DNA of 64,000 nt from NCBI GenBank assembly GCA_903813345.2, contig CAIIXF020000011.1:3310571-3374570 (forward strand). Direction: 5' to 3'. This document shows positions 1 through 37,000 of this stretch, in pieces. This DNA is from Owenia fusiformis (Eukaryota; Annelida; Polychaeta; Sabellida; Oweniidae). The position numbers and the translations under genes were made by a program. Below the pieces are notes generated by a model. That model was not told where the DNA came from and ran no database searches. It was given only the letters and a program-made list of their open reading frames with translations. Numbering within the stretch: the first letter of the stretch is position 1; each line of letters opens with the position of its first letter.

Positions 1-1266
1 TCGGGGTCCATGCCATTCTGATACTCATCACATCGTTCTGTCTTCAACTAGCAATACTAGTGTGAAGCTAAGAGGGGGAGAAACCCCAGGGTTCAAAGAT
101 GACATACGCTTATAATGTAAATCTGTATTGAGATGACATCGTCGCTGATTGGTTTAGCGAGTCGATCATTGATTGGTTTAAAACTAGGTCAATTTGAAAA
201 CTTTGAAAACCAAGATGGAGGGTACCTTTTCGACAAAAGGAGGTGTGCGAAGGAGGAAATCGTATGTCATCAATTGAATCATGGGGTTTTCCCTCCTCTT
301 TGTGAAGCTAATAGAAGGCCATGATTTCTCATGATGGGTCCATGTATAGTTTGGAAGAGGTTGATCCGTTCATTGATTTTAGACGTTTCATTATTTATAA
401 GGCCGACCTTATCATCGATACTATTACTCAAGAACAGCCTGTGTGTCTCATCGACACATATTTACGCTGCTCTCCAAACGTTTTGGAACCGGAAGTTAAA
501 TTTTGTCTCACTAATCAAAGTCCGTTTATTTTTGTAACTATTGTATTTAAGAAACACACCTAAGATCCAATCATTGTCAGACTTTGATATGCCTATTCAA
601 AGCTCCCCATGACTTATGAAGGGGAGTGTCGGTGACGTTGATTCGTCGATTGTAGCATCACACACGCAGGTGATTTTCCACAAAATGAGGAAGTGCAATG
701 ACTAATGCCATAATTGTCCTATCTAATGTACACTCCCTTCTGAAATCGCTTGGCATTTTAAGTTACCTTTTGGATCACATGTCTAAGCATTTTAATATTT
801 GATGATTCTAAATTAGCATCGGATCGCGGAGTGATAAATGTCCGATCGAATTTAATGAGATTTAACGATCTTATCGGTTAATAGCACTTGTACTATTGTT
901 AATTGTACAAAACATATCCACATTTAAATAAATATTGATATGCCATGATGATATGATATATGATATGATATTATACAATTATTTCAATCTAAAAATTCAG
1001 GCAATCCAAAGGGAAGGAGTCGGGCCTACAAAATATTCGAGGGTAAAAGAATAATACACTCAATTCATAGCACTTAATGTAAAGCCATAAACTACGTTCC
1101 ATTGGAAATTTGCATGTAACAGTGAAATATATATATTTCGCATGTACAATTTTCAACCAAATTGTTTAACCCAAAGTCTCACAGTAAAGTACAAAAATAG
1201 AAAAGGCATTGACTCCCTAGTCATTGGAATAATAATATCCGCCTATATATTCATTTTTTTAAGGTT
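1..1266. other. non-coding flank, nothing recognised
   Basis: AT-rich sequence. Short open frames exist (for example 321-563) but they lack a recognisable domain, splice sites or a start context that would support a gene. A short ATGATAT-type simple repeat lies near 940-975. Confidence 0.4.
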
Positions 1267-1289
1267 TTAATTTTCTAATCTAACATCTC

Positions 1290-2635
1290 TATTACATAAA
1301 TTGCAATGCAATGTCTGTCTTGGGTCTCTAATACATAAATTGCAATGCGATGTCTGTCTTGGGTCTCTGACACATAAATTGCAATGCGATGTCTGTATTA
1401 GGTCTCTAGCACATGTATTGCAATGCGATGCCTGTCTCGGGTCTCTAATGCATGAATTGGAATGCGATGTCTGTCTTGGGTCTCTAATACATGGATTGGA
1501 ATGCGATGTCTGTCTTGGGTCTCTAATACATGAATTGGAATGCAGTGTCTGTCTTGGGTCTCTAATACATGAATTAAAATGCGATGTCTGTCTTGGGTCT
1601 CTAATACATAGATTGGAATGCGATGTTTGTCTTGGGTCTCTAATACATGAATTGGAATGCGATGTTTGTCTTGGGTCTCTAATACATGAATTGGAATGCG
1701 ATGTTTGTCTTGGGTCTCTAATACATGAATTAAAATGCGGTGTCTGTCTCGGGTCTCTAATACATGAATTGCAGTGCAATGTCTGTATTAGGTCTCTAGC
1801 ACATGTATTGCAATGCGATGCCTGTCTCGGGTCTCTAATACATGAATTGGAATGCGATGTCCGTCTTGGGTCTCTAATAAATTAATTGGAATGCGATGTC
1901 AGTCTTTGGTCTCTTATACATGTATTGCAATGCGATGTCTTTATTGGATCTCTATAACATGTACAATGTATTGCAATGCGATGTCTGTCTTGGGTCTCTA
2001 ATACATAAATTGGAATACAATGTCTGTCTTGGGTCTCTGATACATGAATTTGATGCGATGTCTGTCTTGGGTCTCTAATGTATTAATTGGAATGCGATGT
2101 CTGTCTTGGGTCTCTCATACATGAATTGGAATGCGATGTCTGTCTCGGGTCTCTGATACATGAATTGCAGTTGAATGTCTGTTCTAGGTCTCTAGCACAT
2201 GTATTGCAATGCGATGCCTGTCTCGGGTCTCTAATACATGAATTGGAATGCGATGTCCGTCTTGAGTCTCTAATAAATTAATTGGAATGCGATGTCAGTC
2301 TTTGGTCTCTTATACATGTATTGCAATGCGATGTCTTTATTGGATCTCTATAACATGTATAATGTATTGCAATGCGATGTCTGTCTTGGGTCTCTAATAC
2401 ATAAATTGGAATACAATGTCTGTCTTGGGTCTCTGATACATGAATTTGATGCGATGTCTGTCTTGGGTCTCTAATGTATTAATTGCAATGCGATGCCTGT
2501 CTCGGGTCTTTAATACATGAATTGGAATGCGATGTCTGTCTTGGGTCTCTGATACATGAATTGAAATGCGATGTCCGTCTTGGGTCTCTGATACATGAAT
2601 TGGAATGCGATGTCCGTCTTGGGTCTCTAATAAAT
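1290..2635. repeat. 39-bp minisatellite, about 34 units
   Basis: Tandem units of 39 bp built around AATGCGATGTCTGTCTTGGG followed by TCTCTAATACATGAATTGG. Because 39 is 13 codons, both strands stay open for long stretches: plus strand 1301-1885 reads 15 copies of a 13-residue unit like LQCDVCLGSLIHE, and minus strand 1779-1267 reads units like HCNSCIRDPRQTS. Two blocks, about 1787-2086 and 2183-2482, are nearly identical with a 396-bp offset, so there is a higher-order duplication. Bidirectional openness without a start, splice sites or domain argues for non-coding satellite DNA rather than a repeat protein. Confidence 0.93.
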
Positions 2636-3030
2636 AAAGGACGATTCTCGGTTTGGAGAACGAAGTTCATCAATCTAGATGAGCATTATCCCTGCTTCTG
2701 ACAAATTTGATTTTTTTTACATAATATAGATTTGAATGTCTTCTTTTGAATAATCATAATTTAATTTGGGTAATATTTCTAGATTTTTCTCAAAAAAATA
2801 TTAGCGCAGTACACTGATGAACTTCTTTCCCCAAATAGAGACTTGTATTTTATTAAAATCGGTATAATTGAGCGTTATCCCTGCTCCAGACCAATTTGAT
2901 ATTTTTACATCTTGTAGATTTAAATGTCCTCTTTTGAATATTCATAGTTTAATTTGGGTAATATTTCTATATTTTTCATGAAAAAAATATTAGCCCAGGA
3001 GACTGTTCTCCAAACCGAGAATCGTCCTTT
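2636..3030. mobile_element. 395-bp MITE inside the minisatellite
   Basis: The ends form a perfect 26-bp terminal inverted repeat beginning AAAGGACGATTCTCGGTTTG (2636-2661 and 3005-3030). Minisatellite units lie on both sides, so the element inserted into the array. The interior holds two diverged direct copies of a ~130-bp segment (about 2678-2805 and 2870-3000), each starting GAGC(A/G)TTATCCCTGCT and ending ATATTAGC(G/C)CAG. No coding capacity and no clear target duplication. The superfamily is not recognised. Confidence 0.85.
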
Positions 3031-3265
3031 GGAATGCGATGTCAGTCTTGGGTCTCTTATACATGTATTGCAATGCGATGTCTTTCTTGGGTCACTATTA
3101 CATGTATTGTAATGCGATACCTTTCTTACTCCTTTGTTCCATGCATTGCCATTTAACACCTGTTTATTCTTTCTATAACATGTACTGCAATGCAATGAAG
3201 GTCTAACGTCTCTATTACATGTATTGCAATCAAATACCTGTTTATTCTCACAATTTCGTATACTT
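3031..3265. repeat. degenerate tail of the 39-bp minisatellite
   Basis: About six diverged units, recognisable by repeated ACATGTATTGCAATGCGAT-like cores, continue after the MITE up to the 3' end of the minus-strand peptide gene. Two units contain TTTATT (3163-3168 and 3241-3246), which on the minus strand are AATAAA polyadenylation hexamers. Confidence 0.7.
3241..3246 (-). promoter_or_regulatory. polyadenylation signal AATAAA of the small peptide gene
   Basis: The minus strand reads AATAAA 19 nt after the proposed TAA stop at 3268-3266. It lies in the degenerate minisatellite tail. A second hexamer lies at 3168-3163. Confidence 0.4.
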
Positions 3266-6200
3266 TTACCTGTCTCTACTTTGGAGTCTGTCGAGGAGCC
3301 GCTGCAAGACTTGCCTCGTTGTGGGTAGCGTTGGGATGTCGTTATTACTGTAGTCATAGTAATTATTCGTATCCTTCTCGTTGCTATAGTAATCTATAGC
3401 TTTGGCGTCTTCAAGAAAGCTTTGCCCACTCGATTCTAAAAGAGAAAATAAAATATTTTAAAGGCATATTTTAAAAAGGAAAAATATCGCTTAATTGTAG
3501 AGCCCAAATAGTATTATCATCCTTTATAATTCAAAATAGGTTTAATGTGGATTATAATATAAGATTTAAAATCTTTATAATGACGCGTTTTGAAGCCGAA
3601 AAGGCAGTCGTTTAGTCTCGTTGGTTTAAATACTGTTTTAGTCTTTGATATTTTCAGAAATTGAAAGTTATATCAAAATTGATTAATTTGTTAAATGTCA
3701 TAAGGAATAAAACATGGGATTAGAAACACAGCTTCTGGTATTTTATAAATTAAGTAATGATAGAAATTAAACGAAAACAAAAGGGACCATTCTCAATCAT
3801 GCAACCAAATTTGCATCAATCAGATAAACCGAAGTGCGAATCACGTACATAGTTCAAGCAATCGTCACTGTAAACAATTAATTTTTCGCTGATACATTGG
3901 ATTAGCGAACGGTCATCTATTGTTCCAATATATACGGTACTTTTGCTGTATATGTATTATACCCGGGTGACATGCAGAACAATTCATCAATTATTTATGT
4001 AAACGGAATATAAGTGCTTTTAAATAAACAAGAGCCTCTCCAGTGGGACCATCGTTTTTACGCATTGTTCCTATGGTACGTCAAAGAATCCAGAAATATT
4101 ATATTTCCAATTATAAAATATGTATGAAGTGAAGAGTGTCTACGAAGTGCAAATAGATATATTTAAATAATAGATTACCAGCAATTGATAGGACTTAAAT
4201 TTTGTGTATTGGTCGATTCTTCAAAAGTTTGAACTCAACCATCGTTGGTAAAGTGAATAAAGTTCAATACTACTATACTATATCGTACTGTATGTAAACA
4301 GTTTAAAAACGTGTGGTTTTGTTCTAAAAACGCCATAGTTGGCTTCTAGGGTACCTAGTGTGCCACTATTTGGTATCAAAATAAAGAAGAGGGGTTCAAC
4401 TTTCATTTGAATCACGAAAATAGCGATGTATGTCAAAATAGTTCCGAGGTGATCCTGTTTACTACGCGTTTGCCCGTCATCTCAGAATTCAGGAAATGGT
4501 AGCAAACGCGAGTTACAATAAATGGACGCTGATATCTCAAAAAGTAACCTGACTCCCTATAATTTTATGTAGATCAATCGAACCCCTATATGAACAGGTG
4601 CATTTTGATATGTAACACTATGGGGGAAAGCGTTTTATAGTTGATCACGAACGCCATATGTGCAAAGTATTGTTCTGAATTTTCGAATTTGGTGTTGGAT
4701 TACGGTACTCAAACCTTAAATAGTGACTGCCATCGAGGGCAATAGTGTAAATTATTCCCCGAGGGAATATCCTCTAAATTAAGAGATGTTCCTTAAATAT
4801 TTTTTGTATGTCAAAATTTTCCTGTGGTTTTCAAATATGTGATCGATTTTTGATAATACTGAAAATTCCCAAAGTTATCTAAGAAAAAGTGACACTTTTA
4901 CAATTCTGTCCTTGCAATTATATTGTTATTTCACATCAAGATGAAGAAAAATGTATTGAACATGTTTACATAAATTACAACATCATATCGAGGTGTGGTA
5001 TTTAGACACCAGAGGGTGGAAATTCAAACAAATAAAGGCTGCAGTAAGAGAGGTAATTTTGAGGTCATCTCTGAACTCTGGGAGGTTTCTCTCCAATTTT
5101 TCTCGACCAATTTGGTGTAGGCCTACACAATACGGCGCATCAATACAAAGTAAAAAATCCCCGTTTGGCCAGTTTTATTTTACAAAGCAGCTGATTGAGT
5201 GTGATTACTAATCGTTTGACATGTTTTACGAAATATACCAGAGGGGTAGTTTTTGATATGTTTGCTTAACGTATCACATAGCGATGTTGAGTATATCAAA
5301 TGTATATGTTGATATCATTAACGGCGGATGTAATGTAATTTGAATTTTTCTACAAATCCGTGCTTGTGTTTTTAACAATACTTAAATATAGAATAATCAA
5401 TCCAATGCGACACAAACTAAATTAATTAGTACTTCATTCAATAGATTGGCAATTGCTCTTCCAAAGGAAATGATTTTGTTTATTTATAAATTGTTTGCCC
5501 AGGGTATAATTAAAATATCAACGCGGTAGTCCGTGGGGCTATAACATTAAACACCGGTCGGGCGTAAATAGGGACGGATCCGGCTATAGTAATAAGTGAA
5601 AAAATATTTTTTTGTTTATAATTTAAGTAACCCTACTATCACACCAAACTAGTTCTCACTACGTTCTCGAAAACGGGCTTAAACGGATTTGACGTACTAA
5701 GAACCCACTAAGAACCGTTTGGGATCTGTTTACAAACTTCATGAAACTACTTGAACAAGTAGGTCCTCCAGAACTTAGAGCATGCTCAAAATTTTCTGTT
5801 GATCAAAAAACGTTGCCGAATCGGTTTTAAACTGTGTGCGAACTGAATGAACGTACCTACAACGTTCTATGGTCAGCTGTTTTAGAACTTCATGGACTTT
5901 CCCGGACGGGGAATGTGATTTAGAATTTTGAATCGATTCAAAATTCGATGGCGACCATACCGTTCTGTAATCAGGTCATGATGACCTTCTAGACTAAGGG
6001 ACGCGTTATACGACGTTATGTTTCGCGGTATATGGCATACATTCATGGTTGCGCGGTATATGTGATACGGGTGAATATGCCATACTCACCTGCGGTATAT
6101 GGCATATTCCGCAGGTGAGTATGCGATATTCCGCAGTGAATATGCGATACATTGATTTCAGTGAATACCCGATACTCATCTGCGGAATATGTCATACTCA

Positions 6201-7324
6201 CTTGCGGAATATGCCATATACCGCAGGTGAATATGACATATACCGCAGGTGAAAACGTGATACAGAAAGCCTTGATTTGATTGGTTGCGAGAATCGACTC
6301 TAAATGTAAAACTACCTGGATTACCAATATTGTTAGTGCGTCGAATACTAATATATGAATCCTTGATTGGTTGAGTAGGTTTATTACGCGCGATTGGTGA
6401 CTGGTACTTCTGCTAAGTTAATATATTCGATACACAGTACTGTTGATTCAGTAATCATTGTAATAATTTATAACGTTTTACTTGTTCGTTCAATCGATGA
6501 TATTGACAATTGCGTACTTCCGTATCACGTTCTCATTGGTTAGTGTGTATGCCATATACCGCAGGTGAATCTGTCATACAATGCAAGTGAATATGCCATA
6601 TTCGTTGCGGAATATGACATATTTTTGTATCGTGTTTACCGCGTAACACGTTACACACCGACGAAGTGCGACCTGAACGAACTGAGAATGAGATGGACGT
6701 ATTGAAGACTGTTTATGAACGAAGTAGCTAATTATTTTAGACGTATTTCCCGACCACAGCCAGATTGAGCCCGTTTTACGACGTTTTCGTAGGACTGGCA
6801 AGAACGGGTAAGAACTAGTTTGGTGTGATAGGGGGGTTAAATAGCGCAGTGTGACATTTGATTGTTTTGGGGACGTCATTATACGTAAATTCATTTATAT
6901 TATTTAATATATTATTTGGTGCATTGTTACCCATCTACTATTATATAAATGATAGAACAACTAACATCGACAATAGGTACTCTCTCTTTATTCCAAACTA
7001 ACATATACCATCAACTAAATATATTAGAACTATATATACCCGTATTCTGCTTAGGACACATTTGCTCCGATTTTCACTACGGCGCCCGGCTGATCGATTG
7101 AATATTTTGTTCAAAATTGAACAAAACATTTAATCGGCCGGGCGCCGGCCGAAGGATAGGAGCAAATGTGACACAGGCATAACTGAACTATAATACCAGC
7201 CAAAAAAGCCTACAAAAATGATATAAAAGTAACATACAAGAACGATAAGAAATTTATATTTACCTGCGGGAAGTCCCAATGTGGTCATACTAATTGTGAG
7301 AAGAAGCGTATAACACCTTTTCAT
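3266..7324 (-). CDS. small secreted peptide precursor, two coding exons, 76 aa
   Basis: Unrecognised gene. Exon 1 (7324-7264) encodes MKRCYTLLLTISMTTLGLPA, a textbook signal peptide (basic n-region, leucine-rich core, small residues before a likely cut after Ala20), and ends at a GCAG|GTAAAT donor in phase 1. The only long open segment met downstream is exon 2 (3435-3266). It is preceded by a pyrimidine-rich acceptor, TCTCTTTTAG, and is entered in exactly the matching phase. It adds 56 residues: an acidic, Tyr/Asn-rich stretch (IDYYSNEKDTNNYYDYSNND) and then an amphipathic basic C-terminus (TTRQVLQRLLDRLQSRDR) before TAA. AATAAA follows within 20 nt. The mature product has no cysteines, and no Gly-Lys-Arg amidation signal is seen. 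A possible CAG|GTAAAAG donor overlaps the stop, so a further exon cannot be excluded. A neuropeptide or other secreted peptide is inference; splicing is unproven. Confidence 0.55.
3436..5630. other. first part of the peptide-gene intron, nothing recognised
   Basis: AT-rich sequence between the acceptor of the minus-strand peptide gene and the Harbinger-like element. No exon-like open segment with flanking splice sites was seen on either strand. Confidence 0.4.
5631..6836. mobile_element. Harbinger-like non-autonomous element, copy 1 (interrupted)
   Basis: Starts CCCTACTATCACACCAAACT and ends with the inverted form, AGTTTGGTGTGATAGGGGGG, with TAA at 5628-5630 and TTAA after the right end. A three-base TWA target duplication is typical of PIF/Harbinger. 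Relative to copies 2 and 3 it lacks about 270 bp of the middle and is split by a 630-bp element (6019-6648). No transposase is visible. Sequence divergence from the other copies suggests it is the oldest of the three. Confidence 0.75.
6019..6648. mobile_element. 630-bp MITE nested in Harbinger-like copy 1
   Basis: Imperfect inverted ends (TGTTTCGCGGTATATGGCAT at the left; the right end reads TGTTACGCGGTAAACACGAT on the other strand) are flanked by CGTTA on both sides (6014-6018 and 6649-6653), a 5-bp target duplication. Next to the ends are clustered short inverted and direct motifs of the type TGCGGAATATG(C/T)CATACTCAC, about ten in all. Comparing with copies 2 and 3 shows the empty site. 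Confidence 0.75.
7054..7172. repeat. 119-bp imperfect hairpin with GGCGCCCGGC arms
   Basis: Left arm begins CACATTTGCTCC and carries GGCGCCCGGC and TTTTGTTCAA; the right arm carries the same blocks inverted, ending GGAGCAAATGTG. It lies 92 bp beyond the donor of the peptide-gene exon 1, inside the intron. It could be a tiny foldback element or form a stable intronic hairpin in RNA. Confidence 0.6.
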
Positions 7325-10353: not shown

Positions 10354-10720
10354 TTATCCTACACTTAGTGTACAAAATGTATAATAACATTAAAAAATAA
10401 ATTTGATATTTATTGGCAAAATGACCGGAGGATATCGTGATGATATACTCCGGGCGGAGGATATCGTGTCGATGTGACAACATACTGCCAAAGTGACTCT
10501 ATTTGGCATGAAATTCATTTTGCAATGACATTATACATTAAGTACACTCCTTTTAAGTGTAGGATAATAAGAACATCCAATGATTTTTTTCAGAATATCA
10601 TTTTAATCTACTCGGTGATATTGATATATGCACTCGTTCGCTTTGTTCTTTCGTGCAGATATCAATATCACCTCGTAGATAAAAATGATATTCCTCAAAA
10701 TCATAGGATATCCCATGATT
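10354..10720. repeat. dispersed repeat with GGAGGATATCG units, copy 1
   Basis: A 214-bp part (10354-10567) has inverted ends TTATCCTACACTTA / TAAGTGTAGGATAA and carries two GGAGGATATCG(T)-type units. It is followed by a conserved hairpin whose arms are GGTGATATTGATAT and ATATCAATATCACC, separated by about 30 bases. The same order of blocks recurs at 53785-54139. Confidence 0.65.
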
Positions 10721-11968
10721 ATCAAACAAGAATACGTTACTACCTAAACGTGACTTCAAATAAAAATAACACATCTTGGTGTTTGTTTGACTGCTATTTG
10801 TTGTTGCTTTGTTTACTGCTTATTAAGGTGAGCGATACCACTTGTGTGTCTCCCGCATCATAGTCGCACTATAGGTCATGCAACCATAGGCGGTGAAACC
10901 ATAACGCCCCTATATGTCAATGGCAATATCATAACATTGTATGATGCCTGAGAACGATATCATATCTGAAACGAAAATTTCAAAATTAGTATGCGTGTAA
11001 GAGGAGATAAGGGGAGAGCGGGTCAAAAATGGCCGTGTGTCAAGAGGGGACACATACATGTCAAAGTGCTTATCTGGTCACAGAACGGCCTCATGGTCGA
11101 CACTCTTGTAGTGTGTGTCATAGTAAAAAATACATATGCTCGTCAGCAATCAATTAAAGTAAATACCTGTACTAGTGTTTTCCTAAAGTTTCTTCAGTTA
11201 CACTTAGCTTAATGAAACGAACAATGCATAATATATTCATGGAGCGTTGTTTCCAAATAATTGCCTAATCTACCCTGCTTTTTAAGGTAGAAGAAAACTA
11301 TGTGTTTTATAAATTTTATTGTAAATAGACAAATACTGTCTGCATTATACTATCTTATTCAAATGTTTATTTTGACCTTGGAACGATACCCAAGGGTAAA
11401 CTTTTTTAATGTTTATATATTTTTATGGAAATTCGAGCAAAGTGCCTTTACTATACTTTTAAATGTGATAGGTACCATTTTTTAAAGTTATAAATAACGT
11501 TCTTATGTGAATCAAGCTTTTTATACATGTTTTGAGCATTTAAGTGTTTCACAAATAAAAACCATTAAACTGATATAAACATCGTACAAATAAAACGAAA
11601 GAATTTAGGCTTAGGACATTTATGATAAGAATGATCAAGTTGTACATCTCATTGATCAACTTAACCTGACTTCACTCGTCCTGATGACCAATCATACACT
11701 TTTATTCGGGGCAATACGGACAATGGAGATACTTTTCAAGTATCGGACAAACACAGCGTTGTGGACACGTTAAGTTAAACGAGACTACGTTAAACTGATT
11801 TAAAAAAGTAGTTTGTACTTTCGAGTACAACCGTTTAAAATCTACTATAGAGCTCTTTGTACTTATATATTTAAACATTGAAACTAAACTTAAAATCAAT
11901 CGTAGTATGGATCTATAGAATAGTTTTGGATATTAACCTATAGTAGGTATTCGTAAAGTTGTGAGGAA

Positions 11969-14900
11969 ATGGATTATCAGGAAAGTGGTATAAGGAGTAG
12001 GTGCAGGCGGATAGGATCTGAGCTGTGGGCTTTTAGGCAAACATTTTTCATCATATGCACTCCACTTTTACTACTCCCGCTTCCATTAGCTATCCCGACA
12101 CAGGTGTGTAGTATAACGATACTCTCTTTTTTATAACGACTATAAAGGGTTAGAGAACTCTTAATGGGGGAGGGGTCTATCGAGTGCCTGTTCTCAATAT
12201 ATTAACCAATTTGTCTCAGGTTTAACAGGGGTGAGCGAGCGTATGCTGTCCCCTTGAATACACAAGTGACCTTTTACCATATTTCAAAAGACCCTTCTAC
12301 ATAGTTCAACATGTCGCTGATAAACTATCCTAGTCTGTCCAATTTTTGTGGCAGACAGCCCTATTGTGCTCGCCTACCTTACTGAGTAGAAATTAATATT
12401 TTGATTAACGGCACTTGTTAATCGTTATTATTCAGATTATCAATATTACAATTTGCAGTTAGCGAATTATGGCTACATCCTGATAGTCATCTAGTGACTG
12501 ACTGAGGTACTATTAGTCTGTATGACGTCATTAGTTCATTTTAGTTTATAAATATTTATATTTCAGCAATACTATCTAAGGTGTACATTTTTTCTGATTG
12601 TTCTCTATATTGACATCATGTGATTTTCAGCCAGCTTATTGCGGCTATATCCTTTTGTTGATGGCTATCTGGTGGGTGAGTGAAGCACTACCAATCTCTG
12701 TGACGTCATTGGTTCCATTGTTTGGCCTCCCATTGCTTGGTGTCGTCCCTGCAGGCCAAGTTTGCCTTAATTATATGAAGGTCGGTTTTAAAATTCATTG
12801 CTTGAAATTGTTTTTGATAAGAATCTATTGTCGGCTATTGAGAACAAAACAATTTATTTCATGTTATTTGACATTAATAATTTACTGCGTTATGTCAACT
12901 CACTATCGGTGACATATCATTATACAAAATATATACTACAGGGTGTCAAAAAACAACAGCATCCCCCCCCCTCTACAGCAAAATGCACTTCATGTTACAT
13001 AGAGTGTCATATCCCATCAGAAATACATCCTTACTGTATCCATTTTCAAGAGGGCCCCTATACATCAATTTCCATACCCTGTCTTTCACATTGAACTTAT
13101 ATTCTCAATGTAGTTGAGATCTGGCCTATTTCCTCTATATTTGTCATTTCCAAGATTTGACCTTAAACCAGTATAAAGTAGCAAACAAAGTACTGAAGTA
13201 ACAAAAGGGATTTTTTGCTGTTGATGGGGATGCCAGTTTTTTTGACACCCTGTACAACATTTTTCTGGATTTGGTTCGGTGTTCGGGGGTCGGCGTTTGG
13301 CGTCAGTAACAAATGCACGGTAGTGACATTTTACACGTTAATGCATCGTTTTCAATTCGCAAAACTCAGACACAATTTCTTCAAATAAGGTTTCCTTATT
13401 TAGAAAATGAACTACATGAATTCGAATGGGATAAACCTCATATTTCTAGTTACAATAACGTTATGTTTATTAAAAGTCGTATCTCATTGCAGAATGCAAA
13501 TGTATTGTTTCTCGGCGGTATAACAGTAGCGATAGCTATTGAAAGATGGAACCTTCACAAACGTATAGCGTTTAGGATTCTCCTTGTGTCTGGCTCGAAA
13601 CCAATATGGTAAGAAACATGGCATCACCATCAACCTATAACAATGTAAATGTATCCCTTTGATTATATCAAATCCCTATATGAAACACAATATATATCAT
13701 TGATACGGTATTAGCTACGAATGAGGAATTGTAATGTACACACAAAAATGAAGGGGGGGGGGGGTATTGCTAGTTCGTGCCTTGTTAAACGTTTTAAAAG
13801 CTATTTAAATTGCATTGGTGCGAAAATTTAACTGATATCCCAATACTATCTGTGAGGTTAAGCGTTTAGTGACATTCATACTTGTTTTAACTCATGCGCA
13901 TACTATAAATTTATTTAGTCATTCTATATATCTATATACGTTTATCGTTTACACAATGAACACATAGAGCTCAAGGTCTTACGTTTTACTGTTACTGCCT
14001 ACCAGTGTCTTATCATATATATCATAGTACGCATCTTTTCTAATACATGTTTTAAACGTTTACACCGACTTTAAATGAAAATTCAAGATGATGGCTAATC
14101 ATATTTATAAAGTCTGAAACAAAAATGAAAATGGCCTCTCTGCCGAATTATAGTCCAAAAAATCTTCATACTGTGTTTATATTGTTAGTGATTTCGTTTC
14201 TATTTAGTACCCGGGTACTACTATCAAATCCGGGAATTACTATCAAAACCGGGAATTTACTATCAAACCCGGGAATTTACTAACAAACCCGGGAATTGCT
14301 ATTAATACAGCATTTCTGCAGTTTACATTTTTGTCCAGTGTACTAGGTTAATGTTATTATATAGTAGTGAGTAATGATACTGACTCACAGTCTAGTGTTG
14401 ATCAAGGTTCATTCTTGGTAGGGTCTGGGAAACCAGACTCTAAAGAGAACTGGGAACTGTTTCTCTGAGCTAGAGCCGTATTCGTTAAAAGTAATAACCT
14501 GAAATGTTATAATGGTCCTCTTTCGATTCGTAACTACTATACAAACTTGCCCCTAACAGATAATGTTAGTAACTCAGTTCCGCTTATGGTACCCGGCACT
14601 TCTAATCTGTAAATTGCACATGCCGTGTAATGCTTTTCGTCCAGTGTATTCTATTCCTCAGGTTCATAAATGAAGGAAAAAAACTGTAGTTCATGTTTAA
14701 GTTTATCTGAACACTACACAAAGATGGGTAATTGATAAAATCATATCTTCTTTACCTTGATGTAGAATTTCAAGTGATGATATTGCCTAATAATGACAGA
14801 AACTAACATTATTTTGTTCAAAGCATGTTTTCCAAATTTTTAACAGCCATTTTGATTTTGAACCACGTGATCGTCGTGTCTTTCGACCAATCAGCAATGA

Positions 14901-17900
14901 TGATGACGTGTTCCAGTCATAGAAAATTTCGTTTAGTGTACGTGTATATCTGTCTCCTAGGTTGATGTTAGGGTTTATGTTAGTCACGTGGTTCCTCTCC
15001 ATGTGGATCAGTAATACTGCAACAACAGCAATGATGATACCCGTTATACAAGCTGTTTTAGATCAACTTGATCCAGCGAATACACCAGATTTTCAGGACG
15101 TCCCTGAAACTCCTCAAGATGGTAAGCTTTCTCATTTCGATACTGTATGCAAACCTGAATTAATATTGATTACAAAAGAGATGTGAAAACAAGCTGTTTT
15201 AGATCAACTTGATCCAGCGAATACACCAGATATTCAAGACGTCCCTGAAACACCCCAAGGTGGTAAGCTCGGTCAAACATTCTCATTTTGTTCATATAAA
15301 GAGAATATAACTCAGGAAATAGATATTGTATGCAAACCTGAATTAATATTGAGAAACGTTTCTTGTCCATGAGGGAACCTAAATAGATCAGAAAGAAATA
15401 CCGGTAGTTTGAATTATCATTGTTACACATTCAGTCAAAGTTAGACATACATCGATCACATCTAAAGATATTATGGTATTAAAATAGTTATGAACCTTTA
15501 CATTCTCAAAAAATCTTAAATGAAGAAGGTTAAAATGATAAAATAAAAAACGTTCACTAGACAAACAGGTTGGAATTAACACATAATAATCAGCGATTAA
15601 TTTTTTAGAATAATCATTAATAACCAGACACAGTCTGATCTTGACCTAGTTATAACTTTTTAAGGCTAGATACAATGGCAACAGGCATGGCCTTGCGATA
15701 ATCACTTTTTTCTTTACTGAATAACCGACCAACTGATTATCGTGACTGATTAAACTTCAAAGGGCTAATTACAAATGACACTGCTGGAATACAATCTCTT
15801 GTCTAAATAAAATGATCAACCTGTCTGTGATAAGAAGTATAAAGGAATTTAAAATGTATCTAATATATTATACAATTAGACAGACTGGCTATTCTAATCC
15901 GTTATGAAAAGCCATTTGTTTTTTCCACTACAGGATGTTTCTACGGAAGTTAATTTGTTTATCTTAGTGTTATAGGCATTGTCCCTTGACGCTTTTATGA
16001 AATAAATGAACTTTGTGATGGACTACAATTGTATATTTTTACATTACATTATTTTCATTTTAGGTGTCTCTTATTACATGTAGTTGCATAGCAGAAGTCA
16101 AATGTTATTCTCTCCGTGTGCCGAAAGCACTTATACCCGTAGCCAAGGGGTGGGGGTGGTTCAAGGAGTGCGAGTGAACAGAATTCGAATTGAATACAAA
16201 ATAGATACGTAGCATATAAATATATAAGTAAATAATGTCTAGCCAAGTCTTCTTTCATTTTCTGAACTTCAAATGCGCCTTTTGACGTGTGGTAACAAAA
16301 TACAAAATAAATAGTTATGTTTGTCCAGCTTGTTTTTTATATTAATTTGGCAATAAAACATGCATAAAGAGATAACAAATTGTGCACTGTGCACAACACG
16401 AATCCCCTCCCCGATCGGGTCGCGTTTACTGTGTATGTAATAATGTACAAAAGTAATGTAATAAAGACAATAATGCCCCCCCCCCTATTGCAACATTTTG
16501 TCAATTAATAGTATTAGCTCGGAGCATCAACACACGTTTGATTGAAATAATTCAAATCAAAGTTCCAAATGAATAAAGATAATGAAGGTTCTGTTTGACA
16601 TTCGAGAACAAGAATTTGTCCAGTCAAAAATAGATTTCTAATATTTGATTTTGATTAGATGTATTTATTGATCCTTGTTTTTAAAACTTCAGATGGTTCA
16701 CTCAATTCTGAAGTAAACAAAAAATAATCCTATACACGATTACTTGGTTCCCATGATACTGCCTATAACCTATAATACTCATTTATCAAAACAAATATTA
16801 ATTAATATGTCCGTCTGATTACATTTTGTTCCCTGACTCAAACTAAGCAAACCCCGATTACAGTTCTTAATTCTCCACTTGAAACGATTTAGCCAACATG
16901 ATACAATATGAAATTTGATTAATTATACATGTATAAAACCTATTGTTATCAAAACCCATAAATGCTCACAGATATAGTTTATTGATGGCTAATAACAGAT
17001 ATCAGGGGCGTAGCCAGCTTTCAGTCAGGAGGGAGTGCGATTGCCAAAAATATTTCGGTTTTCATTCGGGGGGGGTGCGATTGTGACATAAACAGGGGGG
17101 TGCGATTATGACATAAACAAGCCAAAAATGATTTTTATATTGAATTTTACAAAAACTGGATGCGAGTTCCTTCCAAAGTGAGCTAGAAGCTTCAAATAAA
17201 AAGCATTTAAAAGCTCTTTGAGTCCTCTTTCTCAGGGTTTGATTTTTATTGGTTTTCGCAACCCCCCCCCCTCCCCCTCCTCCTTGGCTACGCCTATGGA
17301 TATTTAGAAAGTTTCAAATAAATAACTCAGCAACCAACCACGCAAGTAACCAACCAAGCAAACGACCATCCAAGCAAGCAGGAAACTAAACAAGTAAAAA
17401 AGCAAACCATGCAACTTAGAAATAAAGCAAGCAAACAACCGACAAACCAACCAAGCAAGTAGCTAATTAAACTCTAATGCAAGAAACCAAGGAAGCAGCA
17501 AAGCAACAAAGAAAGAATTTTAGCAAGTAAACGGCCAATCAAGCAATCAATCGTGCTAATAAACAAGCAAACAAACAATCTACCATCCAAGCAACTAATT
17601 AACATAATTCAATAAAATCAAAATTTAACCTTGCGCACATTTGCTCTACGGTAATAATGAGTAATATATAACTATCATATTGATTGCATTTATTAAACAC
17701 AGAAATGAAACACATTGGAGCATAGTTAAATAATTGGGGATGGGAGGGGGTAGTGAACACAAGGGATACTGAATTCTTCCTCTTAAACTTAAATTTCAGT
17801 GCTTGAATGAAGGCTTCCCTTTAACAGATTTAGGGAGTTTCACTACTAGTTTCACTGAGATTGAATTTTTTCAATTGCCTTTGTTATAACATCTTATTTC

Positions 17901-20900
17901 AATACACTGGATATTATGTAAAAGTATTGATGTGTATTTCTTATTCCCGACAATCGAATTTCATATCAAATATTTTAATTATAGTTTTACAGTGGTATCA
18001 CAACGTTATTAATTGCTTCAATATATGCAACACATTTACAAGATTTTAGATTCGACTTTCTACACGATGATAAAATATTTTCTTGGTGATATTCTTTAAT
18101 TACTACTAATTAGTATAAACTATTGATTAAATTGCAGAAATCTGCTGCGTGATAATTGTTAATGAAAAATCTCGAATCCTGGTAATTGAAGTTGGACAGC
18201 TAAATAAAATCTAACATTAAATGAAATTCTAAAAGTGTGTTTCTTTTATTTTTTGTTTGGTTGATAATGAATTATAAAAATGATGTTTGAATAAAAAATT
18301 CAATTTCGCAAAAATTCATATTATTTAGCTAGACAAAGGCTATAGTTTGTTTATTCAACCTGATAATAATTGGGTGAATAATCACTTGACATAATAATCA
18401 GTTGGAATATTTTGCCATTGGCTACACATTAATAAGAATTGATTATCGTAATAGCCAGTGAAAACACTGGTTATTGTTGATTAATAAGTCTTGATAATCA
18501 GCGATAACCACCAATAATAGTCTCGATAATAGGTTTTAACCAGATAATAATCATTTATTCACTGATTATTTGTGATTAAAATTGTTTATATTTGGTCACT
18601 TCGCCCAGTGGTTGACATTTTAAGCTTATCTAGATAGTCATCCAAATCAATTGGAAACTGATATAGCGACCCGAGACACTTTAATGTGGCTTCGGGATTG
18701 CCTACAATATCGACTGATTTGAAAACATTGTCATTTAATTGTTTTTCATATTATACTTTACAGGTGCAGTATTAATCCTCGAACCAACCTCTCCAACTCT
18801 GAGTGAGTATGTATACATTAAAGTTAAGAAACATCGGAAGTGCGATCACTTCCGCAAATGATCCGTAAATTAAACAATAAATAACTGTTTTGAGGGTATA
18901 GTTCAGGTCGAAATGCAATTCTTATTTCAGATGAAGAAAAATCTCTGTTAGGGACTACCACAGAATCTGACATTGACGACATCAGTTTTTCAAATAACAA
19001 AAGGTACTTAAGCATTGTTTTAAAACGTGTCTAGAGGTCAGACTAACACTTTTTAAACTTCGGGCTCTTCTAAGTCCAATTCATGATGCATAACTGTGGA
19101 AAATGTATTGAAACAAGAAATGTTTTTACTAAATTCTCGAATAACTCTGGTCTAATTAAGTAAATTGTTTTCTTAATGTAGAAAATCAGCACTAGACTAC
19201 AAAGATCTCGAGGCCAGTATGAACAATGAAGCATTAAATGATAACAATACATACGACCTACCGTATGAAACAGAAGAAGCCACGAAGGGTGATAGAGCGG
19301 AATTTGAGGTTGGAGTTCCAGAAGAAAAATGTTTGACTCAAGAAGAAAAAGACTTCATCAACATTACAAAAGGCATGAATATATGTGTGTGCTTTGCTGC
19401 AAATATTGGTGGTGTAGCTACCTTAACGGGGACTGCTCCTAATTTGGTATTACAAGAATATGTCACAGGGTATGTGAAGTTCTTACGGCGTTCGAATCCA
19501 ACAACGAGTAATTGAATATCTTAATATTATTGTAAAGACATTGATGTGGTTCTAAATTTGCCATCATAATTGCTTGGCTTGGTTTCAAATTGTTAGTTAA
19601 TTAATATATTACATAACATATTTTGTTCTATTGTGATTTCTCGACCATATGACTGTTTCTCTGAAAAGAGTATCCACTTTTTACTTGCCCGAATCAGAGT
19701 GTGCATGTTATAATCACCTCGACGAATCATATATTTTTATTCTTTCAGGCTTTATAAGGCCCATGACAAAGACGACCCTATCAGTTTTACAGGATGGATG
19801 GCATTCGGCCTACCATTTGCAAGTATAGCGATAGTATTATGTTGGATATGGCTACAGTTGTTTTTCTTTGGTATTAAACAGTGAGTCCACTATTAAGCAG
19901 CCCAACTAAAAATTTAATTGATAAATATGTTAAAGTCAGAAGGGAGGGCCAAGTGAAGAAAAGTTTGACTACCGACTATGAACTTGAATCACTAGTTGTT
20001 TGAATATTTGCTAATACAAACGAGAGAATTGTCTTTAGAGGCCATTTAAAAAGCAGGAGTGTACATTGCTTTTGGCCAGCAGTGATGGTTTTTGCCTTTC
20101 TCAAATTCGTAAAACTCTCAATGAATGATAACTTAAGTCAACTACATTCTTCCAAATGTTTTTAGTTTGGATAAAAAAACACGTCGCTCTCGGAATACTG
20201 ACAGAGGTCTCTTGGTTTGCTCTGTCGACTTTTTGTATACGGACAATATGATAGCCTCGGAAGAACTGCTCTGCTAGGGGTACGATGGAATTACTCTCGA
20301 TATTTGTTTGCATTTTTTTTATCTAGGTCAGTATTTGGTTTTTGTTTTCGGAAGAAAGGCGTCCAAATGAATGATTCTCGGAAAGAGGAAGCAGTGAAGA
20401 GCGTTTTGAGAAAGGAGTATGAAAAACTAGGACCAATGTCGTAAGTGAAACACAGAATAACATCGTTTTACTTCATGTAAAGACTGTTTTAGTGTAACAG
20501 TGAATAGTGCCTTAGTTTTTTTGTGCATGAGATCATTAACAGAGATTTTTTTTAAATTATTCTTTCAAGTACTGGAATGTATATCTAAAATTGCTTCATT
20601 GGATTCTTTGCTATTTCCTCGATTTCAGGTTTGCAGAATGGGTAGTTCTGACTAATTTTCTCATACTGGCAGCTCTTTGGCTGACACGGGATCCAAGATT
20701 TGTTCCGGGATGGGGGACGTTGTTTAAGAAAGGGTAAGCTACGTTACGTTACTTCAACTTGGATAAAAGTGGTAAGGAGCATCATCTGAGTGTAAAAGTT
20801 TACTTGTAGGTCTAATCGACCGTACATTTTGTTCCATATCTCAATTATGAATTAATAAACTGGCGTGTTACGTTTTAGTTTCGTCACAGATTCAACAGTT

Positions 20901-23900
20901 TCTATCCTTATCTGTGTTCTGCTGTTTATTTGTCCATCCAGACGTCCAACGTTCTTTTGCTGTAGAAGATATGGAGGTATGAAGTATTTTCAATTTTCTA
21001 TTTAGTCAGCATACTCAGCCTGTCCAAGTTTTTTTTATTTCTGTTGTGAGAGGTCCTTTATTTAAATAGAGGTCCTTTATTTTTATTATCGTATATAAAC
21101 TATTGTGACTTTTTAAAATTCAATCCAAAATCAAAACAAATGCAATTATTTTTCTGATAAATAATTGGAATTGGAATGTTGCAATTACCGAATAGGATAG
21201 GACAAAATCTATGTGGAATAGTTTTGGTCACAACCAAGGTAGCATTTGCAAAATCAACTTTGGCTGGTGGATTAACCTACTCCATTCATATATATATTGT
21301 TTGGTTAAACAACAATTTTAAATGGAAAAAAACATATCCTTTTCTATAAAAACTGGATTAAGTCAGGATTTATATATCTGAACGATTTTTTTGATGATAA
21401 AGGGATTTTTATTAGTGAAAAGTATGTTTTTAACAAGTTGAATGACAGAAGAAATTGGATTAAAGAATATATGATAATTAGAAGTACTATCAAAATGGCA
21501 ATGAAAAATATACAGACAAATAGAGCTCAATTCACTAATATATTTTATAAATGTGATTTTATAGTAAATGGAAAATATGAAAAATTAGAAGGAAAAAGTC
21601 AAAGTTTTTCTACAATATATTAAGAAATAAACAGTTCGAGAGATCAAATTTAGAAAATGTTTAGAGTACAATGTTCAATTTTGCAAATACAAATAATTAT
21701 TTCAAAATCATATACAGACAAAAAATAAAAGAAATGCCATGTAAAAAAAATTCTGATTTTAATTTAAAATTCTTCATAATTGTTTATACTAGTACCCCGG
21801 ACAGGTTGTATGATGCAGTCGTTTTTTACTCTATATTTGCAATAGAACAACCATTCTTATTGAAATTTTCATATTTTATTCTGGAGACAATTTCCAACAT
21901 GGAAAATAAATGTTTCACCAAAATTTCCAATTTTATGATTTTGACGGGCTTTTTTCAAAAACACTACACTGTCAATAAAATACAGGTTTTTGCTTAAACA
22001 ATTGATCTTTTGACGTCATTTCAAAGATTGCCAGTCTAGCTATTGGATTTTTGACAGCCTAAAGTCTTTCCAGATGTATTTGATGCCATATTAATTATGG
22101 CTGATTATTGTTATTCATTTTAGTCATATTCAATAGGCCTTATATTATTACAGTGCATTAGGCCAATGGAAAACTTGTCATTCTGGGTCATGTTTCTCTG
22201 AAAACGCACCCTTTTCTCCACTGGGTTTTTCCGCCACCGTCACTCAGCATGCGAGCCCGTGGCACGTAAATTGTACCATGCTTTTAACATGTCAAATCTC
22301 CCTGACAATTTCATGATCAAATTTGACACAGCTGTATTTAACATCTCTGAAGGATCTAATGCCAAGCATACTTCAAATAGAAGATTCGTAATGTTTTATT
22401 TCATTTTGGACAGTATTGAACAGTGACCGGGTTGAACTTATGTCTGTGGACAAGAAGATTGACCTCCTCTATCTGGGCTCAATCTAGGGAACGCTTCACA
22501 AAACAAGACACAGAGCAACAAAGTTTTATTGGCCTAATGCACTGTAATAATATTGAATATGACTCAAGTGAATAACAATAATCAGCCATAATTATTTATA
22601 TGGCAACAGATATATCTGGAAAGACTTTAGGTGGCCGGAAATTCCATAGCCACACAATATTTGAAATGACGCAAAAAGTTCAATTGTTCAAGCAAAAACC
22701 TGTATTTTATTGACAGTGTAGTGTTTTTGAAAAAAGCCCGTAAAAATCATAAAATTGGAAATTTTGATAAAAAATTGTTTTTCCATGTTTGAAATTGTCT
22801 CCAGAATAAAATATAAAAATGTCAATAAGAATGGTTGTTCTATTGCAAATATAGAGTGAAAAAATGACTGCATCATACAACCTGTCCAGGGTACTATGGA
22901 TACATGATTAGTAAATGGAACAGAAATATAAGTTCAACCTACATCTTTTGTAATGAAAATCACACAGCGAAACATCTTATTTTTGATTGCCAGAAGGTTA
23001 GAAATATCTGGGAAGATGTTGGAGATATTTTGAATTTTAATGTTCAGTGGAAACACATTGTTGTTGGTTTTAACACAATAGACAGAAAAACTAGAAACAG
23101 AAATATTATTTTAACTATTGTTGCAAATTCAATTTATAAAAGATGGACAAACCTTAATGAAAAGCCAGATGTCTTGAGACAAACTAATTTTAGACAGCAA
23201 GTTTTATCAGACCTTTTATCTTACAACAGTGTATTTCTACTAAATAAATTCAATATGGATTTTGATATGTTTAAAAGAATTTGTAATATTTTATAAGAAG
23301 TAAGTTTTTGTAATATTTTATAAGAAGTAAGTTAAGTGTTTTTCTGTACTTGTATTGTATATATATTTTTAATGTATTAGTTCATATGTTATATTTTTGG
23401 GAATAAAAATTGTAATAATAAAAAAAACTACTCCATTCATATTTAAATGAGTTGGACATAAGAACGTAGATTAAACCAACAGTCGGCAGTTGAATTCGCA
23501 AATGCTACCTTAGATTTTAGTTGGGAATTTACTTCCACATGGCTTATTCTGTCTGTGAGTATTTTGATGTTGGCTTTTATATAGTTCTCAAGTAGCCTTT
23601 TCTCTTTTTTAAGTATACATACTTTCAAACCTACGTTATAGATACAAGTCCTAGCGGGCCAGTAGAACCTTTACTAGACTGGGAGACGGTATGGCATAAA
23701 TTCCCATGGGGAGTCCTCATCCTGGTTGGTGGTGGATTTGCCTTAGCGGATGGAGCCAAGGTACTCTTCCTATATCCCCTCGGGTAACTTTATCGTGGTC
23801 CACAATCATATTCCAGCCTGTTTGTATTTGGAATTTCAAATGTATCGAAATAATCATTTCATCATATCCTAACTAGGGAAAAATTGAGAATAAACATAAC

Positions 23901-34068: not shown

Positions 34069-37000
34069 ATGAGGGTGATTAAGTCATTATTCATGATGCT
34101 TAACGTTTACGGTAAGTGAAACTATACCCTCATTTGTTCGTAACATTGTTGGTTAGGCAGGGGTGTTATGTTTCTTTTTTTCGATATGAGTTTTGGTATA
34201 TTCCTTCCAATATTGATTTAGTTTTGATGCAAACGCTTTTGTTTTAAATCTAAACAGTCAATATGGTAAAACAAAATGTCTCTTCTGCGCATGTTGAAAA
34301 TGTTCACTAATAAATGTGAATTTCAGCACAGTATTCGTTTTAGGTTCATGCGCAAAGTTATTTGTTTTGATCGATTGATAATTACTTCAAAAAACGTGTA
34401 GTAATCATCACAAGCCTTAAAACCTAATTCAAAATTCCTCAACAGTTTGCTAGATTTGCTAACGTAGCCATTAGAATAAAATGCTGCTCATTGTAGACAA
34501 ACTATTGATTCACTTTGACAGTAAAATGTTTACCCGCACCTTTGAAAATTAAATAAAGGTGTGGTCATGCTTGGCATTAGCCGGATTTCCCGAAAATACG
34601 TAATATAATTCATTTGACTATATTATGTGAATATTAGATGTTCAAACCCACAACACAACGACTTATCAAGCAGAATGATAAAAACACAAAACGACCCCTC
34701 GATTACCCTTTTATATCACCAAACCTTAGATATATACCTTGCCTAGATCTGATGTAAATGTTCTCGTGCATCTAAAAAGGCTGGCATGTCGAAAATGAAT
34801 TATACCTGACTACATATTGACTGTATAACATGGTCCCATTTACACCGTTCCGTATTAGTGGTCTTGTTGACATTAATACGGAATAAATCTAAACATTACA
34901 TGAAAAATGGTGACCTTGTCCTACTCTAATTGAGATAATGTTTCACAGCACGTTCGCACGGCGATACTGTATAGCACATGCTCTAGGGAATTGATTCTAT
35001 TTTCCACTGTTGATAGAATAATGATAAAGCCTTAGGGTCAGTTTTGTTTGTAATATCTCCAAATACACGATTTCAGCATTTTAAAAACTAGATGCTAGTC
35101 CACGAGTTAATAAGGAATTGGTCGACTCAATAAGTCAATAAACGAAACGGTGCACACGTGAATGAAATGAAGCAATTAAGATAATTAGTAGACTGTTATA
35201 CAATGTTAGTATGTTTTAACCTGGGGTATAAAACACAATACCTTGAATCTGGGTTTCAATATCATGGGCATTTAAGTTTCAATTACAACTTCATTCGTCA
35301 TGGAGAGGATAATAGTGATAATATTTGTAGAGCTCTAATACCGCCAGGATATGAAGATCTAAAGAACGTACAAACCTCGTTCACTTTCACTGGCGATGAG
35401 GAATACACTGAACAAGCTGATGTTGTTGCTTGCTTCGAATCATCACTTCCTGACATTATAAATAAACAAAAGCATCGTTCCAACGTTCTTCATACTTTGT
35501 ATTAAAGCATTACGTTTACTACTTATTGCGCAGCTAAAAATTGTGCAGCATCTGTAAAAATACTGCACTAACCAAATGTAAATAAGCTCTTATTTAGGTA
35601 GCCTGGCTAAAAAAATATTATTTTCATACCAGAAATATACGCTGGAAGTACAACGTGCGGTCGAAAGTTTTCCCTTAGGCAAGATTCGTGGGAAGTGAAA
35701 GATACTATCAAAGAGGAAGTGTCAGCTTTGGCAAAGGATATTTCTAAACTAATAACAGGTGTCTCCACACTGACAAAGATCGTTTCCACCATGAAGTCTG
35801 ACATAGAAGCTAACATTGTTGGTATTAGAAGAGACATTGCTGCACAAGTTAAGACATCTACTGGTAAGTACAAGGTTCTGACAAGAACAAATGTCTAGCA
35901 AATTGAAATATATGTGTATCTCATTGAAAAAATACCTCACAATATATTTCCTTGTATCTGTGAACCTATTTTTCTCATTTTAAGGTCTCGTGATTTTGTC
36001 ACTTCCTGTTTTGTCATTGCCTGTACCACGAGTGTGATGTGTATTTTCAATGGGATATGGGATATGCACGATATAATCTCACTAGGCTGGATAAATTGCG
36101 TGTGTTTTTACATTTACAGATAAAAAGAATTGCGATTCGACACCCTGCCACAATGGCGGCACTTGCACCGAACAAGGAAATGGCTATACGTGTAAATGTA
36201 AGACTGGATATACTGGAATCAATTGTGAAACAGGTTTGGGAAATGGTTAATTGTTGCACTTGGTCACATAATAAAAACATTTTACAACTGGTATAACGTG
36301 GCAACAGAGCAGATACGTTTGCTTCTGTCTCGCACATAACAATTACAATACGGATTTACCTTATTAATACATATACTTCTTAGTAGTTGCAGATTTACAC
36401 GTAGACGGGTGTAGTTTTAAAAGTCCTTGTCAGAACGAGGGCACCTGTTTTGGCAGCGTTAACGGCTATACGTGTAAGTGCAAGGCTGGATATACTGGGG
36501 CGAATTGTCAGACAGGTATGACAATAAAGAGATAACAATAGAGAGTAACGCAGAACCTTGTGCGAGTCCTTCAAAGTCATCCAAATAATTGTAAGACAAC
36601 GCTATGAATTTTAATGTAGTCCCACAAGGCCCCATCTAATAAGCACTGGGAATTTGAAATAACTATCCGATTACATGATCTGTGCTTTCTCGTACTATTG
36701 ATTCATTAAGAAATGATTATAAACGTTTAACTTCATATTACAGAAGGATACGTTAATTGGTTTTGATTTTAACAAAACTAAACTTTCATTTGTATGTGTA
36801 TCACTGGTGATCCGCTCGATTACGCTGGTTACCGAAACGAACCGTTTCGGTAATAAAATGTCGGAACGTCGAAGGTACGAATTTTCTTTTTTGATTATTT
36901 TGCTCGTTGTAGGCAGAATCCATCCCTACGTCATTTTTTCTCACAAACGTGTATCAGTATCATGTTTTATAAAAGGTACATATTTGCGAAAATAGCTCAG

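What the first reader, a model, noticed from the sequence alone, without database searches (positions are those of the whole stretch)
3266..7324. Hidden two-exon gene for a small secreted peptide on the minus strand
A signal-peptide exon with a perfect donor and, 3.8 kb away, a single open 170-bp exon with a good acceptor join in the one correct phase and give 76 residues, a stop and a nearby AATAAA. The mature chain is an acidic Tyr/Asn-rich stretch followed by an amphipathic basic tail, RQVLQRLLDRLQSRDR. I do not recognise the family. It could be an undescribed neuropeptide, hormone or antimicrobial precursor.
Basis: partly seen in the sequence, partly recalled or inferred. Interest (0 to 1): 0.85.

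Follow-up and report, generated by a model that had tools for sequence, protein, structure and literature searches.

The report
Front half of a secreted-peptide gene
Two short coding pieces on one strand very probably start a gene for a secreted peptide in an animal, but the proposed end of the protein is probably a splice site misread as a stop, so the working peptide likely lies outside this window.

Summary
The exons are as described and above chance. On the minus strand, 7324-7264 (MKRCYTLLLTISMTTLGLPA plus one base) joins 3435-3266 in frame: 76 residues. Exon 2's acceptor is the best of 392 AGs downstream of exon 1; the exon is 45% GC, its flanks 27%. A pair this good occurs in 2 of 150 shuffled windows, 0 of 150 if a second donor is also required; one other, probably false, pair occurs in the real window.

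The claim of a complete gene is doubtful. The stop TAA (3268-3266) lies inside a donor, CAG|GTAAAA. Only 86 of 8145 stops do so, while 86 of 116 strong donors carry a stop there when reached in phase 2. I read exon 2 as internal, ending ...LQSRD(R/S), the next exon probably left of the window. The layout (signal exon, phase-1 intron, Cys-free pro-region with basic end, phase-2 intron, introns over 3 kb) matches published three-exon peptide precursors such as CCWamide/agatoxin-like peptides and conotoxins. No homologue was found; no animal genome collection was available. Family unassigned; interest moderate to low.

The parts
7264..7324 (-). Coding exon 1: ATG at 7324, MKRCYTLLLTISMTTLGLPA plus first base of the next codon (G); signal-peptide-like
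   Evidence: two Lys/Arg then an uncharged hydrophobic stretch, mean KD 1.66, plausible LPA|ES cleavage; no dedicated signal-peptide predictor was available
3436..7263 (-). Intron 1, 3828 nt, phase 1, GTAAAT...TTTTAG; holds a TIR element (5628-6839) and a palindromic element (7045-7182)
3270..3435 (-). Coding exon 2 read as an internal exon of 166 nt: G|AA completes E, then SSGQSFLEDAKAIDYYSNEKDTNNYYDYSNNDIPTLPTTRQVLQRLLDRLQSRD and AG|, phase-2 end in an Arg or Ser codon; probable pro-region
   Evidence: Acceptor 11.23, donor 7.57, GC 0.452 vs flanks 0.273; fifth of 40 candidate internal exons by splice score
3266..3268 (-).
3241..3246 (-). AATAAA proposed as polyA signal; weak evidence
   Evidence: 320 of 8145 stop triplets have one within 30 nt; another copy starts at 3168
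1286..3127 (.). 39-bp minisatellite (main array 1286-2632, further copies 3029-3127, decayed copies to about 3240), which would lie in intron 2; judged non-coding
   Evidence: in the 30 copies counted, non-synonymous changes outnumber synonymous ones two- to four-fold in each of the six frames

Best explanation
The two exons are the first two coding exons of a secreted peptide-precursor gene on the minus strand. Exon 1 encodes the signal peptide. Exon 2 encodes a cysteine-free pro-region: an acidic Tyr/Asn/Asp-rich spacer followed by a basic, helix-prone end, ...RQVLQRLLDRLQSRD(R/S). Exon 2 does not end the protein: it is spliced at CAG|GTAAAA (3270/3269) to a further exon, probably beyond the left edge of the window, which would encode the mature peptide. 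Inferred working: the signal peptide directs the precursor to the secretory pathway, the pro-region helps folding or sorting, and a convertase cuts after the Arg-rich junction to free the mature peptide. Shown here: the sequence, the frame, the splice-site quality, the GC contrast, and the donor at the stop. Inferred: splicing at that donor, the off-window exon, and all processing.
For: Exon 2's acceptor ranks first of 392 downstream AGs. GC is 0.452 against 0.273 in the flanks; about 1.9% of 166-bp windows are as GC-rich. In the internal-exon scan, real sequence gives 40 candidates against 5 and 9 in the two reversed controls; 5, 0 and 0 score 18.8 or more (the cut-off is this exon's own score). 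Of the 6 distinct candidate loci with GC contrast of 0.12 or more and score of 14 or more, 3 of the other 5 match Pfam families: symporter at 23614 and 24440 (E 0.0027 and 9.4e-5, both under the curated cut-off), C-type lectin at 46773 (E 1.4e-6, above it). By codon use of the neighbours only the proposed frame of the six scores above zero. SP-exon plus open-exon pairs of this quality occur in 2 of 150 shuffles, and 0 of 150 when an internal donor is also required. A stop inside a donor scoring 7.5 or more: 86 of 8145 stops; 86 of 116 such donors start GTAA, GTGA or GTAG. Published three-exon secreted-peptide genes have phase-1 and phase-2 introns at these places.
Against: No transcript, no homologue, no exon 3 in hand. 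Donor 2 lacks the +5 G. The codon score is modest (3.2 bits over 54 codons; 36 of 1256 overlapping open windows score as high, several of them looking like real transporter exons; trained on 776 codons, mostly of membrane proteins; in the other five frames each stop was charged 6 bits, so that contrast is partly just the open frame). Exon 1 is a moderate signal peptide, rich in Thr and Ser. One more pair passing the same filters exists in the real window, on the + strand at 6497-6564 and 10659-10860; it lies in repeats, has no GC excess and is probably false, so shuffles understate the false rate. At loose cut-offs pairs are common (9 real, 107 of 150 shuffles hold one). The AG| split codon is expected at many phase-2 introns from the donor consensus alone.
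Confidence: 0.55

Rival explanations
1. One reading: a complete two-exon gene for a 76-residue precursor ending at TAA 3268-3266, with polyA signal AATAAA at 3246. The mature 56-residue chain, or its basic tail, is the active peptide.
For: Frame, stop and AATAAA are present as described. GC is low (0.28 over 60 nt) after the stop, as it could be in a 3'UTR. No convincing third exon is in 1-3265 among acceptors scoring 2 or more.
Against: The stop is inside a good donor (about 1% of stops). The 3'UTR would be only about 40 nt. AATAAA near a stop is not rare here (320 of 8145) and a second copy lies in the decayed satellite. There is no dibasic site and no C-terminal Gly for amidation in the 56 residues.
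Confidence: 0.17
2. The exons are the N-terminus of a larger extracellular or single-pass membrane protein, exon 2 being a flexible linker, not a pro-region.
For: A signal exon with a phase-1 donor followed by a Cys-free, Asn/Asp/Tyr-rich exon fits such a start equally well (inference). The gene would run off the window; the window also holds genes with extracellular-type domains (EGF exon at 36.4 kb, NHL frame at 37.2-38.1 kb, C-type lectin at 46.7 kb).
Against: The basic, helix-prone end at the exon border is more typical of a pro-region (inference). No sequence test separates the two.
Confidence: 0.18
3. Chance: one or both exons are not real, for example exon 2 is a real exon of another transcript and exon 1 is spurious, or neither is transcribed.
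For: Signal-like ATG exons with donors of 6 or more are found in shuffles (0 to 9 each in ten, mean 2.5; 2 in the reversed control; 6 real). A probably false pair passes the same filters in this window. No homologue.
Against: 2 of 150 shuffles for the pair, 0 of 150 with the internal donor; GC contrast; best acceptor in range.
Confidence: 0.1

Closest known systems
CCWamide / agatoxin-like peptide (ALP) precursor genes (PMC8557429, section 9 read)
   Same: Short precursor, usually three exons; [quoted passage not shown] a non-conserved peptide before the mature one; [quoted passage not shown] basic residues at that end.
   Different: The defining eight-Cys amidated peptide exon is not seen in the window; whether the split codon here is Arg or Ser is unknown; no sequence comparison was made.
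Three-exon conotoxin precursor genes (PMC3862624, passages read)
   Same: Signal, pro and mature parts roughly on three exons; intron 1 phase 1, intron 2 phase 2 in most superfamilies; introns over 3 kb. In the I1 superfamily the exon borders fall 2 bp before the end of the signal sequence and 1 bp before the end of the pro-region, as here.
   Different: The pro-region here, 56 residues, is longer than that of the one I1 precursor whose table row was shown; no mature exon is seen; the species is unknown. I take the match as a shared gene layout only.
NPY/NPF-type neuropeptide genes (PMC7314547 section 6 read; PMC8536682 passages)
   [quoted passage not shown] here R-D-AG|.
   Different: No Pfam match. 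NPF peptides are given as 36-40 residues; here 56 residues run to the split codon. The Pro residues do not fit positions 8 and 11. No exon starting F-G follows among acceptors scoring 2 or more in the window.

Membership tests
CCWamide/ALP precursor | Signal peptide in the first coding exon | tested here: met
   (by hydropathy and charge, no predictor)
[quoted passage not shown]
   Donor at 3270/3269 scores 7.57 and splits AG| (Arg or Ser); use of the donor is not shown
CCWamide/ALP precursor | Last exon with eight conserved Cys and amidated aromatic C-terminus | not testable with these tools
   No phase-compatible exon with more than one Cys in 1-3265 outside the minisatellite, among acceptors scoring 2 or more; DNA left of the window is not held
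Three-exon conotoxin-type precursor | Signal / pro / mature on three exons with phase 1 and phase 2 introns | tested here: inconclusive
   First two exons and both phases fit; third exon unseen
Three-exon conotoxin-type precursor | Superfamily signal sequence and mature Cys framework | not tested
NPY/NPF | RxRF/Y with phase-2 intron in the second Arg codon | tested here: inconclusive
   R-D-AG| is present; Phe/Tyr-Gly exon not found in 1-3265 among acceptors scoring 2 or more
NPY/NPF | Recognisable NPY/NPF sequence (profile match) | tested here: not met
   0 Pfam families listed for the 76 residues with E up to 10; HMMER's filters drop most matches above about 0.1, and the C-terminal exon is lacking
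NPY/NPF | 36-40 residue peptide after the signal peptide, Pro at 8 and 11 | tested here: not met
   56 residues to the split codon; Pro only at 35 and 38 of the chain after Ala20 (sequence)
Linear cationic antimicrobial peptide | Net positive mature chain | tested here: not met
   56-residue chain has net charge -3; only the 16-residue tail is +3

The most novel reading that the evidence does not exclude
Probability: 0.08. Interest if true: 0.55.

Novelty: new member of a known kind. Interest (0 to 1): 0.28.

Why it matters
If the gene is real it is one more small secreted precursor of the sort automatic annotation may miss: short exons, introns over 3 kb, transposons and satellite in the introns. 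The more general point is one of method: a stop codon that starts at the T of a GTAA donor is the normal look of a phase-2 internal exon, and small two-exon peptides proposed by eye should be checked for it before their C-terminus is interpreted.

Tried and rejected
Homology: Pfam for the 76 residues (0 families listed with E up to 10); PDB (one hit, a designed helical repeat protein, E 0.51, taken as chance); viral and prokaryotic contigs with 54 codons of exon 2 (20 and 197 pattern matches, none confirmed by tblastn); six peptide strings in 5.39 million papers (0). None of these sequence collections is meant to hold animal genomes, so these misses say little. Purifying selection could not be tested for want of relatives.

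A third exon inside 1-3265: acceptors scoring 2 or more, from 30 nt past the donor, were listed with their phase-2 continuation. The four I weighed outside the satellite (67, 1025, 225, 1216) give 12-21 residues to a stop, without family features; a weaker one (438, score 2.1) gives 53 without Cys; not accepted. The minisatellite as coding exon: rejected, since synonymous changes are the minority in every frame (30 of 35 placed copies, the 5 least alike dropped) and frames break along the array.

Exon 2's end as a decayed satellite copy: alignment to the unit not above shuffles for 3310-3255 (p 0.28), 3300-3262 (p 0.18) or 3265-3227 (p 0.36), while 3240-3190 and on is satellite. Rejected.

A paralogue in the window: none convincing. 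Helical amphipathicity as evidence for a membrane-active peptide: moment not unusual for its composition (p 0.17).

NPY/NPF membership: considered because of the R-x-R| junction, then lowered; the AG| split codon follows from the donor consensus at many phase-2 introns. Paper searches for gene layouts; passages of PMC4888303 and PMC10501145 were seen and used only as background.
Full report
What was checked. The window reads as animal DNA: 31-39% GC in 2-kb steps, spliced genes matching animal families, non-LTR element fragments by eye; no genome is held for it. I take it to be an invertebrate, by inference only; the species was not determined.

Is it more than chance? With splice matrices recalled from memory, exon 2's acceptor scores 11.23, the best of 392 AGs downstream of exon 1 on that strand and reached by 9 of 6163 AGs on both strands; the first donor scores 9.04 (41 of 7136 GTs as good). 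Exon 2 is 45.2% GC, its two 150-nt flanks together 27.3%. A scan for internal exons (acceptor and donor 6 or more, 80-350 nt, one open frame) gives 40 intervals in the real window and 5 and 9 in the two reversed controls; with a summed score of 18.8 or more, 5 against 0 and 0; adding GC contrast of 0.15 or more, 1 against 0 and 0, and that one is 3435-3270. The cut-off of 18.8 is this exon's own score; the exon at 24440-24577 misses it by 0.01, so the count of 1 is by construction and only the controls' zeros inform. Reversal also destroys real splice-site context, so these controls are lenient. Among the 6 distinct loci with GC contrast of 0.12 or more and score of 14 or more, three (23614-23783, 24440-24577, 46773-47003) match Pfam: sodium:sulfate symporter E 0.0027 and 9.4e-5, both under the curated cut-off, and C-type lectin E 1.4e-6, above it. 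The others are 20629-20733 (no Pfam match; lies among the transporter exons), 16064-16149 (no match), and exon 2. So at least half of what this filter finds here is real.

For the pair, I asked how often a signal-like ATG exon with donor 9 or more is followed within 10 kb by an in-phase exon open for 150 nt with acceptor 11 or more (cut-offs set just under the observed values). Real: 2 pairs. Shuffled: 2 of 150 windows have one. With a further donor of 7.5 or more at the end of the second exon: real 2, shuffled 0 of 150. At looser cut-offs (6 and 6): real 9, mean 2.0 in shuffles with 107 of 150 holding one; with the further donor, real 4 and 6 of 150. The second real pair at the strict cut-offs (+ strand, 6497-6564 with 10659-10860) starts inside a TIR element and ends in an inverted repeat, has no GC excess and a poor signal sequence; I think it false, which shows that dinucleotide shuffles understate the rate of false pairs in repeat-rich DNA. 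Signal-like exons alone, by a somewhat stricter rule: 6 real (one is the lectin's own signal peptide) against 2, 2, 2, 9, 0, 1, 3, 0, 0, 6 in ten shuffles and 2 in the reversed control; with donor 9 or more, 2 real against two single hits in ten shuffles and 0 reversed. Codon use learned from 776 codons of ten neighbouring segments gives +3.2 bits for the proposed frame and negative values in the other five, where each stop was charged 6 bits; 36 of 1256 overlapping open windows elsewhere score as high, several of them looking like unlisted transporter exons; the training segments, exon 2, the satellite and the 57.9-60.2 kb element were left out of the 1256. Taken together I hold exon 2 to be real at about 0.9 and its link to exon 1 at about 0.8; these are judgements.

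The stop TAA at 3268-3266 is bases +2 to +4 of CAG|GTAAAA, a donor scoring 7.57 (112 of 7136 GTs as good). In the whole window 86 of 8145 stop triplets lie in such a donor (1.06%), while 86 of the 116 donors scoring 7.5 or more begin GTAA, GTGA or GTAG and would therefore show an in-frame stop at once when the exon ends in phase 2. The AATAAA 19 nt on is weak support for a terminal exon: 320 of 8145 stops have one within 30 nt, and the same word recurs at 3168 in decayed satellite. It would also imply a 3'UTR of some 40 nt.

What it would then be. Exon 1: signal peptide. Intron 1: phase 1, 3828 nt. Exon 2: an acidic part (net -6 in 40 residues; five Tyr, five Asn, seven Asp in the 56-residue chain) and a basic end, RQVLQRLLDRLQSRD(R/S), net +3 with the last residue read as Arg, with no Cys and no internal dibasic site. 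Intron 2: phase 2, more than 3 kb if it runs off the window, containing a 39-bp minisatellite and an element with perfect 26-nt inverted ends. That layout is the published one for several kinds of secreted peptide precursor. For CCWamide and agatoxin-like peptides the signal peptide is in the first exon, a non-conserved peptide follows, and a phase-2 intron splits a basic codon just before the exon of the mature eight-Cys peptide (PMC8557429, section 9 read). For most three-exon conotoxin superfamilies intron 1 is phase 1, intron 2 phase 2, all over 3 kb, and in I1 the borders fall 2 bp before the end of the signal and 1 bp before the end of the pro-region (PMC3862624, passages read). For NPY/NPF the intron splits the second Arg of RxRF/Y (PMC7314547 section 6 read; PMC8536682 passages). 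A caution: the donor consensus itself ends exons in AG, so an Arg or Ser codon split after its second base is expected at many phase-2 introns; the agreement is a lead and not a test. Among acceptors scoring 2 or more I found no phase-compatible third exon in 1-3265 that begins F-G, or, outside the minisatellite, has more than one Cys.

Neighbourhood. On the + strand a SLC13-type transporter gene begins to the right: five segments from 13.5 to 24.6 kb match the symporter family in Pfam, one of them above the curated cut-off; the nearest solved relative of the 14961-15121 segment is SLC13A2, E 5.1e-13. It stands head to head with this gene. Further right are an EGF-like exon at 36.4 kb followed by an NHL-repeat frame at 37.2-38.1 kb, a C-type lectin at 46.7 kb, and what looks like a non-LTR element at 57.9-60.2 kb. 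No tRNA and no Rfam family at gathering score was found.

Verdict. A likely real start of a secreted-peptide precursor gene; the proposed active peptide is probably its pro-region and the proposed stop is probably a splice donor. Family undetermined. One transcript or the next stretch of the contig to the left would settle it.

Noticed in passing
1286-2632 and 3029-3127: 39-bp minisatellite, about 34 copies in the main array, open for 204 codons on both strands because its unit is 13 codons; synonymous changes are the minority in every frame.
   Followed up: yes
2636-3030: 395-bp element with perfect 26-nt inverted ends sitting inside the minisatellite (I8).
   Followed up: no
5628-6839: 1.2-kb element with 32-nt, 91% inverted ends, containing 22-bp palindromic repeats, inside intron 1.
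   Followed up: no
7045-7182: Short inverted-repeat element (50-nt arms, 72% complementary) 80 bp downstream of exon 1's donor (I5).
   Followed up: no
13493-24577: SLC13-type sodium-coupled transporter gene on the + strand, five segments with Pfam matches; open segments near 12.6, 25.0 and 26.1 kb look like further exons.
   Followed up: partly
22868-23296: Open frame on the + strand with a weak zf-RVT match (E 0.0028, under the curated cut-off), a reverse-transcriptase remnant inside the transporter gene.
   Followed up: no
36393-38134: EGF-like exon and an NHL-repeat frame on the + strand, possibly one gene.
   Followed up: no
46739-47003: C-type lectin start with its own signal peptide on the + strand.
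   Followed up: no
57889-60204: Non-LTR retrotransposon frames on the minus strand, judged by eye; of two of the three frames tested in Pfam one gave nothing and one only a chance-level match (E 0.28).
   Followed up: no
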